This document shows, piece after piece, positions 7,735 to 42,628 of a stretch of 64,000 bases of DNA (positions within the stretch are counted from its first letter, which is position 1; each line of letters starts with the position of its first letter). The notes beneath the pieces were generated by a model that did no database searches, was not told where the DNA came from, and saw only the letters and a list, made by a program, of their open reading frames with translations. The stretch covers positions 124,001 to 188,000 of the forward strand of contig JAOARJ010000002.1 of the NCBI GenBank assembly GCA_025210615.1, written 5' to 3'. The position numbers and the translations under genes are program-made. This DNA comes from Candidatus Altimarinota bacterium (GTDB lineage Bacteria; Patescibacteriota; Gracilibacteria; BD1-5; UBA6164).

Positions 7735-8481
7735 ATGCTTACAAAACCTAAAAATCAAATAGAATTAAATCAAATTAGGAAAAATTGAGAAATACATAAA
7801 AAAATTATAGAAGAAGTAAAGAAAATAGCTATAGAGTGAACAAATTGAAAACAAATAAATGATTTAGTTTTAAATTTATGTAAACATTATAATGTAGAAC
7901 CGGCTTTTACCTGAATAATGTGATTTAAGTGAGCGATTTGTATTAATATAAATCATTGTGTAGCTCATTGAGAACCAAGTAAATATAAATTTCAATCTTG
8001 AGATGTTGTAACTTTTGATTTTTGAATCCGTGATAAAGAACTTTGATTGAATACTGATGCCGCTTTTACTATGATAATTTGAACGCCAGCTCACCCGGAA
8101 GTAGAAAGATTTCTAAGAATAAATCAAGGAGCCTTAATGGCTTGAATAAAAAAAGCTGTTCCTTGAAATAGAGTTTGAGATATCTGAGAAGCTATAGAAA
8201 AGTTTTTAGAGAACTCTTGATTTCATATTATTAAAGATTTAAAATGACATTGAATTTGATATAAAGTGCATGAAAAACCAAATATTTTAAATTATAAAAC
8301 AACTGATAAATGACAAAGACTACTTGAAAATATGACAATATGTATTGAACCTTTATTATGATTTAATTCGTGAAAAATTAGTCAAGATGAAAATTGAATA
8401 TATGTAGATGATTGAAGTTTATGAAGTCAATTTGAACATATGATTGTAATCAAAAAACCTTACCCTGAAATTATAGTTTAA
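7735..8481 (+). CDS. map: methionine aminopeptidase, type I
   Basis: Removes the N-terminal Met from nascent proteins in the cytoplasm. 248 residues, the normal length for type I. The five metal ligands of the pita-bread fold are present in order: D in FDFG, D in NTDAAF, H in GHGIG, E in CIEPLL and E in QFEHMIV. The substrate-site His is seen in INHCVAHG. Most glycines are TGA. Start ATG 14 nt after the previous stop, no SD. Unlike the usual bacterial arrangement it is not beside secY, adk or infA; adk lies 34 kb away. Confidence 0.96.
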
Positions 8482-36298: not shown

Positions 36299-36322
36299 AG
36301 ACCCTTGGCATACCAAGAGTCT
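36299..36322 (-). terminator. terminator of the tiny membrane-peptide unit
   Basis: Minus strand AGACTCTTGG / CCAAGGGTCT 10-bp stem (one U-G), 4-nt loop; overlaps the stop of the 46-residue gene. Same build as 12451-12474. Confidence 0.6.
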
Positions 36323-36461
36323 AATTATCCCCCTTTTTTTTACACTTATAATCATCGCATTTGCTAAACTTTATTAGCAAACATACAATCACCGTTAGTG
36401 CAAAGCACATATAAATTCCCACTCCTAGGCCTACAATTTGAAGAAAAGTTAAGTCTTTCAT
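36321..36461 (-). CDS. 46-residue membrane peptide
   Basis: MKDLTFLQIVGLGVGIYM, then a hydrophobic stretch (CFALTVIVCLLIKF) and a Cys/Lys-rich hydrophilic tail (SKCDDYKCKKKGDN). One membrane helix at about 8-33. The SD AAGGAG lies 7 nt before the ATG. All four glycines are GGN. The start overlaps the end of the upstream tiny gene as ATGA, suggesting coupled translation. Function unknown; the size and shape resemble small membrane toxins or regulators, but this is only a resemblance. Confidence 0.65.
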   Translation of the reverse strand: MKDLTFLQIVGLGVGIYMCFALTVIVCLLIKFSKCDDYKCKKKGDN

Positions 36462-36574
36462 TTTTTTCTCCTTAAAGAATTTTTAAGCATTCCTATTATA
36501 ACACAGCAAACATTATTTGTTGTGCATAGAATTGCTCCTATAAATAACAATATAAAAAAATCAAAGGCCTCCAT
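36449..36574 (-). CDS. short membrane peptide, upstream partner
   Basis: MEAFDFFILLFIGAILC, then TTNNVCCVIIGMLKNSLRRKK: one or two hydrophobic stretches and a basic end. With TGA as Gly it is 41 residues (stop TAA at 36449); with TGA as stop it is 38 residues and ends exactly at the ATGA overlap with the next gene. SD GGGGGGA lies close before the ATG at 36574; an earlier in-frame ATG at 36589 lacks an SD. Its two glycines are GGA. Confidence 0.6.
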
Positions 36575-36625
36575 AATTCCCCCCTTCATTTTTTTAATTC
36601 ATTTTTCTTTTTGTATTAGTATATT

Positions 36626-36654
36626 ATTATATAAAAAATCATATAGAAAGTCAA
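36626..36654 (-). promoter_or_regulatory. promoter of the tiny membrane-peptide unit
   Basis: Minus strand TTGACT (36649-36654), 17-nt spacer, TATAAT (36626-36631): near-perfect consensus. Confidence 0.75.
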
Positions 36655-36741
36655 AAGTTTTTTATATTAAATTAAATACTTAACTAATTTTATATTTATT
36701 ATTTAATTTATATATACTCTTGATTTTTTGAAAGTATTTTT

Positions 36742-36769
36742 TTGACAAGTATTCTAAAAAATATATAAT
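36742..36769 (+). promoter_or_regulatory. promoter of module A protein
   Basis: TTGACA (36742-36747), 16 nt, TATAAT (36764-36769). The spacer shares GTATTC and most other bases with the module B promoter at 37480. Confidence 0.75.
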
Positions 36770-36798
36770 ACAACATTATATCATTATTTTGTTTTCTT

Positions 36799-37245
36799 AT
36801 GAATACAACAGAAATGTCTAATATAAACAAAGAAAATAATGTGTCATCTAGAATAATAAAAATATCTAGAGAGGAATTTTATTTATTTTTTAAAGAAATA
36901 GAGGATTTTTTCTTTAAATATTGAATCATAGATTTTCCAAGTGAAGATCTTTGTAATATAAAAAAAGATATTATACGATTAGATCAGATTATACTTGAAG
37001 AATTAGTTATTTATTATTACAATGCTTACTACAAAAGAAATCAACTCCTAATTCCTGAAAATAATGAAAAATTTTTTACTATACTAATGAAATTTTGCTA
37101 TAATTTTTGTATAAAAAAATGAAAAAATACTTCTAAGAAAATTTACAGATTTCTAGAAAAACATAAATTAGCTATCAAATCTGATAATATTTCTGAACTT
37201 ATTGAAGAAGTTACTAAAAAAGTTAGTAGAGATATTATTAATTAA
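36799..37245 (+). CDS. module A protein, unknown
   Basis: 148 residues, helical, no membrane segment. It shares an F-x2-I-x2-K-x-CYN-x2-I-[KR] block (here FFTILMKFCYNFCIKK, about residues 93-108) and a similar position for it with the protein encoded at 37537, so the two are probably distant paralogues. Rich in Glu/Lys/Ile/Phe. No SD. Both its glycines are TGA. Its stop at 37243 is followed after 2 nt by the promoter of a structured RNA. No known family recognised. Confidence 0.7.
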
Positions 37246-37247
37246 AA

Positions 37248-37274
37248 TTGACTTATAATTATTTTTATTATAAT
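37248..37274 (+). promoter_or_regulatory. promoter of small RNA A
   Basis: TTGACT (37248-37253), 15 nt, TATAAT (37269-37274), beginning 2 nt after the stop of the module A gene. Confidence 0.65.
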
Positions 37275-37280
37275 ACAGTG

Positions 37281-37424
37281 GGACATAAAGAATCCTAAAA
37301 ACAAAAGGAGGTTGCCTATGTAACAAGGCGCTAGTAAATAAGAGGGGGGTAAATTACTAAACACTCTTTCAAAAAATCCCCCTCTTATGATATATCTGAT
37401 TATCTTTGATAATCGGATTTTTTT
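37281..37424 (+). ncRNA. structured small RNA A with a start-stop mini-ORF
   Basis: About 144 nt from the promoter at 37248 to a terminator. From 5' to 3': AAAAGGAGG SD (37303-37311) with optimal 6-nt spacing to ATG-TAA (37318-37323) set in the loop of a GCCT / AGGC hairpin; a perfect 11-bp stem ATAAGAGGGGG / CCCCCTCTTAT (37338-37348 with 37378-37388), which hides a second SD-like purine run; then a terminator, ATCTGATTATC / GATAATCGGAT (37394-37418) with T7. No frame longer than a few codons, so it acts as RNA or as a ribosome trap. Not recognised as any known RNA family. Confidence 0.65.
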
Positions 37425-37479
37425 ATTTAACTCTTTTTATATTTATTTTTTAAAATATATACTTAGTTAACATTTTTAT

Positions 37480-37507
37480 TTGACTGGTATTCAAAATAAT
37501 ATATAAT
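37480..37507 (+). promoter_or_regulatory. promoter of module B protein
   Basis: TTGACT (37480-37485), 16 nt, TATAAT (37502-37507); spacer closely similar to the module A promoter. Confidence 0.75.
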
Positions 37508-37536
37508 TTTGAGAAATATTTTCTAACTATTTTTTT

Positions 37537-37995
37537 ATGAATAAAGCAACCTCTTTACAGGATTATACATTTATAAAAGAAGTTGAACTTTTACAAGAAG
37601 AGGTAGAAATAATAGTAGAAGCTATAAATGATTTTTTTCAGACCCATGAAATAATAAATCCTGAAAATAAGCCTACTGTAAAAATACAAAAAGAAGTTTT
37701 AATAGATTTAGACACTGAAACTTTAGATAAGTTGGTAAAATTACTTAATGATCCGATAGGTTATGAAATTGGCTGTTGTCCTGGTTTTTATAGAATATTT
37801 TTTAAAATCTGTTATAATTATTGGATAAGAAATGTTGATGAACCTTGAAGTTTTTCATTAGATGTTTTAGACTTTTTAATAGATAATTTAAAAAATATGA
37901 ACAGTGAAAGAAGTAAAAAAGTTTTAGAACTTGTTATAGATACTTCAAAAAGAACTAGAGAAATTGTAATTTTTAAAAAACTACCTTATTGTTAA
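37537..37995 (+). CDS. module B protein, unknown, paralogous to module A
   Basis: 152 residues, acidic, helical (VELLQEEVEIIVEAINDFFQ). A CC pair lies before the shared block FYRIFFKICYNYWIRN, aligned with FFTILMKFCYNFCIKK of the module A protein. The C-terminus is DTSKRTREIVIFKKLPYC. One glycine is TGA (at 37846-37848), three are GGN, so the host code is used. No SD. Own promoter at 37480 and a structured RNA just downstream. Function unknown. Confidence 0.7.
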
Positions 37996-38004
37996 TAAAA
38001 AAAT

Positions 38005-38031
38005 TTGACTTACAAAATATTATAATATAAT
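38005..38031 (+). promoter_or_regulatory. promoter of small RNA B
   Basis: TTGACT (38005-38010), 15 nt, TATAAT (38026-38031), 10 nt after the module B stop. A second overlapping TATAAT starts at 38021. Confidence 0.65.
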
Positions 38032-38037
38032 ATGTAG

Positions 38038-38179
38038 GCTTTTCAGGCAGTTAAAACCAAAGGAGGTGATGTCTTATAAGCACTTAGTATAATAAAGGAG
38101 GTAATTAGCAAATGTATTTTGAAACCAGAACTGTCAACTATTTTTAAGATGAACGCTAATTACCTCCTCCCACTTTTTT
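38038..38179 (+). ncRNA. structured small RNA B with extended SD and SD-sequestering terminator
   Basis: About 142 nt. First SD is AAAGGAGGTGAT (38059-38070), a 12-nt perfect match to the usual complement of the 16S rRNA 3' end, with an ATG overlapping it that opens a 7-codon frame (MSYKHLV). A second AAAGGAGG (38094-38101) lies 10 nt before an 11-codon frame (38112-38147, MYFETRTVNYF). Its GGAGGTAATTAGC (38097-38109) pairs perfectly over 13 bp with GCTAATTACCTCC (38155-38167), and a T6 tract follows: the terminator hairpin buries the SD and encloses the mini-ORF. Same architecture as RNA A. Confidence 0.65.
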
Positions 38180-38192
38180 AAAATACAAACTA

Positions 38193-38218
38193 AAAACTCT
38201 CTGAAATAGAGAGTTTTT
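38193..38218. terminator. bidirectional terminator
   Basis: AACTCTCT / AGAGAGTT stem, loop GAAAT, T-runs on both strands; separates small RNA B from convergent secF. Confidence 0.8.
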
Positions 38219-38232
38219 TAATTGATTATTTT

Positions 38233-39225
38233 TTAATCTTCGTCTTTTGGCTCTTCATACTTTTTAAGAATTTTATTTTTATTTAATTCAAATAATATTG
38301 GAGAAGCGATAAATATAGATGAGAATGTTCAAACAATAGTACCGAATACCATAACTAATACAAATCCTTTAACTGTTTCTGGACCAAAGAATAAGATAGA
38401 TAATAACACTGCTAGTACTGTTAATGAAGTATAAATACTTCTTGTTATTGTTTCATTTACTGAGTCATTAATAATAACTTCTAGACTTTTTCCTCTTCCT
38501 CCATAAACTTTTAAGTTTGCTCTAATTCTGTCTAATACTACAATAGTATCATTAATAGAATATCATAAAATAGTTAATAATGCCGTGATGAAGAATGTAT
38601 CAATTTGAAATTCTGGTAATATACTTGAAGTAATTATATATAATCCTGATGAGATAAATACATCATGAAATAATGTAATAATAGTGATAGTTGCAAATGA
38701 TAAAGCGCTTATTCCAGCTACATGTCAATTAAATGCATAAGCGATATATAACGCGATAGAAATTATAGCTACAATTAGTGTTAAAAATGCTGTATTTTTA
38801 ATATAATCTCAAAAACTTTTTCAAATACTTGTATAATTATCTTCACTAAATTCAGTTCATAATTTCATAGTTAATTCATCTTTATATTGTTTTTTTAGGT
38901 CTTCTAAACTAATATCTTTAGTATTTTTTATTTCATCAAATCAAGCTACTACAACAACAGTATTTTCTCAAGCAACTTTATAACTTTGAGTATTATTTAT
39001 AATTCAATTATTTTTTTTATCAAATTCTTCAGTAAAACTTTTTACCTCTGATTTAAATTTATCTAGATCTAACTCATGAGTATAACTATATTCAATTTTT
39101 TCTCAACCAGTCATATCTATTCAAAGATTTAACGGTAAAAATCAAATAGCAAATATAGAAAACAAAAATAAAACTCAAGAAATAATATAAGAAATAAATC
39201 TTATTTTTATAGCATTTAATTTCAT
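38233..39225 (-). CDS. secF: protein translocase subunit SecF
   Basis: 330 residues. N-terminal membrane segment (about 9-32), GIDMTGGEKIEYSY (the D1-like motif), a periplasmic head, then five membrane segments with ITALLTILGYSINDTIVVLDRIRAN (D4-D5) and RSIYTSLTVLAVLL (D6). Partner of SecD at 18.1 kb. Start at the ATG preceding KLNAIKIRF; no SD. Between it and the pilin-like gene upstream lies about 90 nt of AT-rich DNA. Confidence 0.95.
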
Positions 39226-40196: not shown

Positions 40197-40346
40197 ATGA
40201 CAGCAGAAACAGCAGAAATAATAACTATTCTTGGAAGATGCGCAATTGTGTGTTTTGCCTTGATTGCAGTAGGAATAGTATTCTTTAAAAAAGACAAAAA
40301 GGATAATCAATTGCGTCCTTTTTGCAAAATAAATGGTACCTGCTAA
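40197..40346 (+). CDS. 49-residue membrane peptide
   Basis: Sequence features: MTAETAEIITILGR, then a membrane helix (CAIVCFALIAVGIVFF), a Lys/Asp stretch (KKDKKDNQ) and a Cys-containing end. The SD GGGAGG lies 5-6 nt before ATG 40197, so I prefer it to the ATG at 40125. Three glycines, all GGN. Own promoter, structured leader, own terminator. It resembles the 46-residue peptide at 36321 in size, topology and expression signals. Function unknown. Confidence 0.65.
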   Translation: MTAETAEIITILGRCAIVCFALIAVGIVFFKKDKKDNQLRPFCKINGTC

Positions 40347-42224: not shown

Positions 42225-42257
42225 AACTTCTTTTTTATAATTTTAAATTTATTTAAT

Positions 42258-42628
42258 TAATCTGAGTAATAAGCCGGATTCTGTATCTCGGTATCAATCT
42301 ATCCAGGCTTATAGTTACCTATAAGCTCAAGCTCGGTAAGTTTTTATTTAGCGTTTAGAAGACCGTAATCCAAATAAAAACTCCATTCCAATTGCACCCC
42401 ATAAGGTTTACCAAAATAATTTACATTATCTTCATTAGTAGCGTGAACATCTAATGACTTTTCACCTTTCACTGACAAGTCAGTTAGTATAGTCTCTGTG
42501 GCACTAGCTATAGATTAGTCTTAATTTTTATACACTAATCCCGAGGTCGTTATCCTCTATGGTGTCTTCGTGGTGTCCAGACTTTCCTCTCCTAGAATTT
42601 CTAGCAGTAGATACCTTCCCAGATTAAC
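42258..42628 (-). ncRNA. rnpB: RNase P RNA
   Basis: About 370-nt RNA on the minus strand. The conserved P4 5' part GAGAGGAAAGTCTGGACACC is at about 42577-42596, ACGACCTCGGG near 42541-42555, GTGCCACAGAGACT in the specificity domain near 42490, GGGGTGCAATTGG (P15 region) near 42395, and the 3' P4 strand AATCCGGCTTAT at 42269-42280. The ends pair as P1 (TTAATCTG with CAGATTAA). Cleaves the 5' leader of pre-tRNAs. Type A-like; I saw nothing to suggest a missing core helix, though the specificity domain is small. Confidence 0.93.

What the first reader, a model, noticed from the sequence alone, without database searches (positions are those of the whole stretch)
36742..38179. Duplicated two-part module: small protein gene plus structured, SD-rich small RNA
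Module A: promoter 36742, 148-residue protein, promoter 37248, RNA 37281-37424. Module B: promoter 37480, 152-residue protein, promoter 38005, RNA 38038-38179. Protein promoters share their spacers (TTGAC.., GTATTC, TATAAT). Proteins share an F-x2-I-x2-K-x-CYN-x2-I block. Each RNA has a strong SD, a tiny frame, a second SD-like run locked in a long stem and its own terminator. The RNA promoter begins within 2-10 nt of the protein stop. Repetition of the whole layout argues for a functional unit; a protein-RNA toxin-antitoxin or ribosome-targeting system is possible. I recognise no known family.
Basis: partly seen in the sequence, partly recalled or inferred. Interest (0 to 1): 0.88.

Follow-up and report, generated by a model that had tools for sequence, protein, structure and literature searches.

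The report
Twin protein genes with ribosome-binding RNAs
A recoded bacterium whose genes almost never carry the usual ribosome-docking signal has two side-by-side copies of a unit, an unknown small protein plus a short folded RNA that carries that signal twice, which may be a way of catching or steering ribosomes.

Summary
In detail: two tandem units, each a strong promoter, an orphan ~150-residue protein, a second promoter 2-9 nt past the stop, and a ~143-nt terminated RNA with one strong Shine-Dalgarno (SD) near its 5' end and a second SD buried in a 13-14 bp stem. The proteins are real paralogues (29% identity). The 5' half of the RNAs, SD1 included, is conserved beyond 2000 shuffles.

Added here: the contig is practically SD-less (3 of 308 ORFs of 150 aa or more have an SD), so these SDs stand out. 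Other strong intergenic SDs mostly lead small membrane/lipoprotein ORFs that avoid the TGA-glycine codon and look foreign.

No credible relative of protein or RNA was found in the genome, 99 related and 379 phylum genomes, viral contigs or family libraries, so the co-occurrence test could not be run.

Most likely: a duplicated protein-plus-sRNA unit whose RNA docks on, and titrates or signals, 30S subunits with a free anti-SD. This is inferred; SD1 of copy A is predicted mostly paired. Rivals: tiny-peptide mRNAs or decayed SD-led cassettes; a protein-RNA toxin-antitoxin pair (unsupported but not excluded).

The parts
36742..36769 (+). promoter of protein gene A, TTGACA-16-TATAAT with shared GTATTC spacer
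36799..37245 (+). orphan protein A, 148 aa, code 25 (both glycines are TGA), no SD upstream, pI 8.6
37248..37274 (+). promoter of RNA A, TTGACT-15-TATAAT, starts 2 nt past the stop codon
   Evidence: same hexamers and spacing in copy B
37281..37424 (+). RNA A, about 144 nt, folded, terminated
   Evidence: z -4.3
37305..37311 (+). SD1 of RNA A (AAGGAGG), 6 nt before ATG-TAA at 37318-37323
   Evidence: P(unpaired) 0.30
37338..37388 (+). SD2 hairpin of RNA A: AUAAGAGGGGG pairs with CCCCCUCUUAU
37394..37424 (+). intrinsic terminator of RNA A
37480..37507 (+). promoter of protein gene B, TTGACT-16-TATAAT with shared GTATTC spacer
37537..37995 (+). orphan protein B, 152 aa, code 25 (one TGA glycine, three GGN), no SD upstream, pI 4.8
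38005..38031 (+). promoter of RNA B, TTGACT-15-TATAAT, starts 9 nt past the stop codon
38038..38180 (+). RNA B, about 142 nt, folded
   Evidence: z -4.1
38060..38066 (+). SD1 of RNA B, part of AAAGGAGGTGAT, complementary over 12 nt to the assumed 16S tail (-19.2 kcal/mol); 7-codon ATG frame 38069-38092
38096..38168 (+). SD2 hairpin of RNA B, AGGAGGUAAUUAGC pairs with GCUAAUUACCUCCU, then CCCACUUUUUU (likely terminator); 11-codon frame 38112-38147 in its loop
38192..38218 (-). terminator-like hairpin behind the convergent secF gene

Best explanation
Each unit makes (1) an SD-less mRNA for an orphan, probably mostly helical protein and (2), from a promoter inside the gene's 3' untranslated region, a short stable RNA. 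SHOWN from sequence: the layout, the paralogy, the conserved SD1, and the SD2 locked in a stem. INFERRED: the RNA works by its SDs. Where mRNAs almost never use an SD, SD1 docks by 9-12 bp on the 3' tail of 16S rRNA in 30S subunits whose anti-SD is free. Because the frame behind SD1 ends at once (ATG-TAA in A, seven codons in B), the docked ribosome makes nothing: the RNA is a decoy mRNA that titrates such subunits, or a sensor in which docking opens or protects the neighbouring hairpin. The hairpin holds a built-in SD:anti-SD helix that could also stabilise and end the RNA. The partner protein would bind the RNA or the complex (weakest step). One consequence would be control of the SD-led small genes of the same genome.
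For: 3 of 308 ORFs of 150 aa or more on the contig have an SD at -6 kcal/mol or lower upstream of the first ATG (median +2.0), against -12.3 to -13.1 for the four SDs of the two RNAs. 3 of the 23 AAGGAGG found on the contig lie in the two RNAs. SD1 survived in both copies (15 nt at 93%) though the proteins are only 38 of 130 residues identical and third codon positions 68 of 130; the 5' parts align better than all 2000 shuffles. SD2 is paired in both although the stems are in different registers. The reading frames are not conserved while SDs and stem are. SD-led small ORFs exist as possible clients. Precedent: in SD-less Flavobacterium a ribosome subpopulation lacking bS21 selects extended SDs (PMC9976891, abstract and outline only).
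Against: SD1 of RNA A is predicted mostly paired (unpaired 0.30; B 0.71). Whole-RNA similarity is modest: 6 of 2000 shuffles reach the core score, and the best shuffle beats the whole-length score. With two sequences the one covarying pair proves nothing (255 of 500 shuffles). ATG in RNA B is only 2 nt behind GGAGG. The 16S gene is missing from the assembly, so the anti-SD is assumed; bS21, the protein that makes the Flavobacterium mechanism work, was not found. No relatives, so no comparative test of RNA with protein. The two proteins differ in charge (pI 8.6 and 4.8), which does not suggest a common RNA-binding face.
Confidence: 0.33

Rival explanations
1. The two RNAs are mRNAs of tiny peptides, or decayed relics, of the SD-led small-gene cassettes scattered in this genome; the orphan proteins are merely neighbours that were duplicated with them.
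For: The genome carries a class of short SD-led ORFs, some of 23-34 codons and in pairs; RNA B has two SDs each followed by a short frame (7 and 11 codons); the divergent operon 36321-36574 next door belongs to that class.
Against: RNA A has only ATG-TAA and no start behind SD2; frames are not conserved between copies, SDs and the stem are. Of the SD-led ORFs listed none has its SD in a perfect stem of the kind scanned.
Confidence: 0.27
2. Protein-RNA toxin-antitoxin or other RNP pair (type III-like): the RNA binds and holds the protein in check, or the protein holds a toxic ribosome-trapping minigene RNA in check.
For: Small protein gene plus adjacent independently promoted structured RNA, kept together through a duplication. 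Very short frames behind strong SDs are known to trap ribosomes or peptidyl-tRNA (minigenes; recalled, and abstract beginnings in the listing).
Against: No match above cut-off in Pfam, none in NCBIfam, PHROGs or PADLOC models, no RNA repeat array, RNA behind and not before the gene, own promoter; low-confidence models, and the one searched gives no fold match.
Confidence: 0.15
3. Cis-acting 3' untranslated region: the RNA mainly ends and stabilises the protein mRNA, its promoter-like sequence being a chance product of A+T-rich DNA.
For: No terminator lies between protein stop and RNA; the promoter spacers are a suboptimal 15 nt; promoter-like sites are common here (25 found against 19.4 expected).
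Against: The hexamers, their spacing and the TTGACTTA sequence are conserved between copies; a plain terminator would not keep SD1.
Confidence: 0.13
4. Sponge for a GGA-binding protein such as CsrA rather than for ribosomes.
For: SD1 contains AAGGA; CsrA binds GGA motifs and is sequestered by small RNAs (abstract beginning of PMC4894983, listing).
Against: Only one or two exposed GGA motifs per RNA, none in a hairpin loop as recalled for CsrA sponges; presence of CsrA was not tested.
Confidence: 0.04

Closest known systems
Extended-SD autoregulation of rpsU in SD-less Bacteroidota (PMC9976891, abstract and outline only)
   Same: An SD-less genome with a few exceptionally strong SDs, around -13 kcal/mol, read by a ribosome subpopulation
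   Different: There the SD leads the bS21 gene; here it leads no gene, and bS21 was not found in this genome
Code-11-compatible phages of Gracilibacteria/Absconditabacteria (PMC10746230, passages)
   Same: Genes without in-frame TGA in or for a code-25 host, like the SD-led small ORFs around this locus
   Different: The two protein genes here do use TGA for glycine, and no phage family was matched
Type III toxin-antitoxin systems (ToxIN and relatives; abstract beginnings)
   Same: Small protein gene adjacent to a structured RNA
   Different: No repeat array, opposite order, own promoter, no sequence match
3'UTR-derived small RNAs with their own promoter (recalled; a 3'UTR sRNA is in the listing, PMC10703908)
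   Same: RNA promoter just behind a stop codon, shared terminator with the mRNA
   Different: Those pair with mRNAs; this one is built round two SDs

Membership tests
Type III toxin-antitoxin | toxin of a known endoribonuclease family | tested here: not met
   no family match above cut-off for either protein; remote similarity below detection not excluded
Type III toxin-antitoxin | RNA made of tandem repeats (recalled; also an abstract) | tested here: not met
   no tandem repeat in either RNA
Type III toxin-antitoxin | RNA binds and neutralises the protein | not testable with these tools
   needs an experiment
rpsU-type extended SD regulation | exceptionally strong SD in an SD-less genome | tested here: met
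   3 of 308 ORFs with an SD; RNA B SD1 -13.1 (-19.2 with the longer assumed tail), RNA A SD1 -12.5 (-13.0); anti-SD assumed
rpsU-type extended SD regulation | SD leads rpsU (bS21) | tested here: not met
   no bS21 match in the genome (96% complete)
SD-led TGA-avoiding small-gene cassette of this genome | SD followed by an ORF of at least 20 codons | tested here: not met
   frames of 1, 7 and 11 codons
Rfam RNA families | reaches a gathering score | tested here: not met
   none in 36600-38250; best 23.2 bits against 55
CsrA/RsmE sponge RNA | many GGA motifs in hairpin loops (recalled) | tested here: inconclusive
   GGA of the SDs lies outside loops; CsrA itself not searched

The most novel reading that the evidence does not exclude
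A new kind of ribosome-directed module: in a recoded, SD-less lineage, a protein works with a small RNA that displays a free extended SD next to an internal copy of the SD:anti-SD helix, and so captures 30S subunits with a free anti-SD. It would starve or time the SD-led, standard-code (foreign or phage-like) messages in the same cell.
Probability: 0.12. Interest if true: 0.9.

Novelty: new variant of a known kind. Interest (0 to 1): 0.55.

Why it matters
If true, an organism that gave up the SD as its general start signal kept it as a private channel: a decoy or sensor RNA and a set of SD-led small genes addressed to a ribosome subpopulation. That would be a second, unrelated case of specialised ribosomes beside Bacteroidota rpsU, and a possible barrier to, or tool of, standard-code phages in a code-25 host. 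Even if false, the split between SD-less TGA-using genes and SD-led TGA-avoiding small genes is a directly testable feature of this lineage.

Tried and rejected
Homologues: protein A in 99 related genomes (own included), 21 of 99 at E <= 1, none credible outside the own genome (best 8.9e-4 in a frame with stops); protein B 8 of 99, best outside 0.008; the two-row profile in 379 phylum genomes, 4 of 379 at 0.01 including the own; genome contigs none; viral contigs none; phage records with B and plasmid records with A, none; solved structures, one match at E 0.77. RNA model R1: only A and B in the own genome below E 1. Outside: 8 of the other 378 phylum genomes at 0.1 and 24 of the other 98 relatives at 1, with stricter filters and capped candidates. 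I read the best two phylum hits and four of the relatives: none shows the SD layout, so I take them as chance; the rest were not read. The two weak own-genome hits read lie in ordinary sequence. DNA patterns for the RNA and the promoter in viral contigs: 0. Structure models too poor to use (pLDDT 49 and 55); fold searches with the second found nothing at E <= 0.001. Base-pairing of RNA arms with start regions: the 3' arm of B pairs best with SD-led genes, but that follows from its CCUCC and the arm is locked in the stem, so it is not counted as evidence. A list of marginal protein hits was first read on the wrong strand and redone. A first, hand-picked list of 16 SD-led ORFs left out sites with TGA-using frames (C4:345801, C4:254052, minus strand) and some SD-led frames; I therefore repeated it by a fixed rule.

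Full report
WHAT IS THERE. The window is from a code-25 genome (TGA = glycine: 4892 TGA against 1877 GGN glycine codons in 308 ORFs of 150 aa or more on its contig). It is G000 contig C4:124001-188000 of a 1.25-Mb assembly in 16 contigs. The finding sits between a two-gene operon of tiny membrane proteins (36321-36574, minus strand) and secF (38233-39225, minus strand; name from its sequence, recalled).

THE TWO COPIES ARE RELATED. Proteins A and B align globally with a score of 69.5 against a shuffled mean of -5.4, sd 11.8, best of 1000 shuffles 45; 38 of 130 aligned residues and 68 of 130 third codon positions are identical, so the duplication is old. The protein promoters are 85% identical over 33 nt, and promoter and start codon both keep a spacing of exactly 738 nt. 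The RNA promoters share hexamers, TTGACTTA and spacing. The first ~80 nt of the RNAs align better than all 2000 dinucleotide shuffles; the core up to the end of the stem is reached by 6 of 2000; over the full length the best shuffle exceeds the observed score (z 3.7). What is conserved is AAAACnAAAGGAGGT (SD1), TAGTA..ATAA and the GGRGG of SD2, not the reading frames.

STRUCTURE. Both RNAs fold far better than shuffles. SD2 is buried in both, but the stems run in different registers (A: AUAAGAGGGGG; B: AGGAGGUAAUUAGC), sharing only the GGRGG:CCYCC core. One core pair differs on both sides (G-C in A, A-U in B), but with two sequences this has no statistical weight (255 of 500 shuffles reach it). 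SD1 is mostly free in B (0.71) and mostly paired in A (0.30) in the predicted ensemble. That is a real weakness of a model that needs SD1 exposed, although the pairing in A is a short hairpin.

WHY THE SDs ARE STRIKING. On the contig only 3 of 308 ORFs of 150 aa or more have an SD at -6 kcal/mol or lower before the first ATG, and 6 of 130 smaller ones (starts were called by a simple rule, and the anti-SD is assumed, as no 16S gene is in the assembly). Stretches of two related genomes look alike: 2 of 139, 2 of 83 and 0 of 63. Against that background the four SDs of the two RNAs score -12.3 to -13.1. In the list of 50 intergenic sites at -8.5 or lower only the minus-strand complement of RNA B's own hairpin is lower (-13.2); the next outside the RNAs are -12.8 (window 40186), -12.5 and -12.2. 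With a longer assumed tail RNA B SD1 reaches -19.2; one other site on C4, not in that intergenic list, reaches -22.0, so it is not unique in the raw sequence.

WHAT OTHER STRONG SDs DO. A fixed rule (ATG/GTG with an SD at -8.5 or lower, ORF of 20 codons or more, not inside a large TGA-using ORF) gives 14 ORFs on the contig. They are short (23-139 codons), mostly with a hydrophobic span or a lipoprotein-like start, and hold 8 TGA against 58 GGN codons, where large ORFs have 72% TGA; 12 of the 14 have no TGA, 7 of the 8 TGA lie in one ORF (C4:253446-253679), and the last is the ATGA overlap of the operon next to the module, which reads naturally as a stop. These genes look acquired from standard-code donors, or like the code-11-compatible phages described for these phyla (PMC10746230, passages). 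The module's own proteins are native: A has 2 TGA and 0 GGN, B 1 TGA and 3 GGN.

SEARCH FOR RELATIVES. None credible for protein or RNA (see Tried and rejected). The nearest relatives share only about 50-60% SecF identity and no other genome of the genus appears among the relatives, so absence of fast-evolving small genes is expected and says little.

MECHANISM. The most economical reading of what was conserved (SD1, buried SD2, terminated RNA, non-conserved frames) is an RNA that acts through 16S pairing: a decoy or sensor for 30S subunits with a free anti-SD. Shown: architecture and conservation. Inferred: transcription, ribosome binding, role of the protein, clients. The Flavobacterium precedent shows that such subunits can exist in an SD-less organism (PMC9976891, abstract), but its agent, bS21, was not found here, so another cause would be needed. 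Rivals and their weights are listed in their sections.

KNOWN OR NEW. No Rfam, Pfam, NCBIfam, PHROGs or PADLOC family fits. Paper searches turned up no described RNA of this kind in these phyla in the titles and abstract beginnings listed; that is a statement about those searches only. I rate it a new variant of a known kind (independently promoted 3'-end sRNA, strong-SD regulation in an SD-less genome) with an uncertain mechanism.

Noticed in passing
window 36321-36461 and 36449-36574 (minus strand): Two-gene operon of 46- and 38-residue hydrophobic small proteins with strong SDs; the first ends in TGA overlapping the second ATG, as in the standard code, although the genome reads TGA as glycine.
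   Followed up: partly
C4 of the own genome, e.g. L052 19232-19657 (-), L052 13371-14005 (-), window 40197-40346 (+): A class of short SD-led, TGA-avoiding membrane/lipoprotein-like ORFs between native genes of an SD-less, TGA-rich genome (14 by rule: 8 TGA, 58 GGN). Two small ORF products searched outside: no relatives.
   Followed up: partly
C4:400880-401068 (-), in L058: Another orphan structured RNA of about 188 nt with its own TTGACA-TATAAT promoter behind a 51-residue SD-led membrane ORF; folds at -65.6 kcal/mol with GGGAGGG and GGAGG in its hairpins; no Rfam match at cut-off.
   Followed up: partly
C4:281348 (-), in L052 13348: An SD with no start codon behind it, in a small hairpin between a lipoprotein-like gene and its terminator.
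   Followed up: no
L112 about 8180-8462 (-), related genome G001: SD-led membrane ORF with a TGA in a natural stop position, so the SD-led class may also occur in another genus.
   Followed up: no
L127 about 1690-1720, related genome G042: Back-to-back AAAGGAGG motifs around a CCTCCTTTAAGCTTAAAGGAGG palindrome between genes, one with a 4-codon frame in a hairpin.
   Followed up: no
whole assembly: No 16S rRNA and no bS21 gene found.
   Followed up: yes
window 42254-42626 (-): RNase P RNA class A, the only Rfam hit of the window at cut-off.
   Followed up: no
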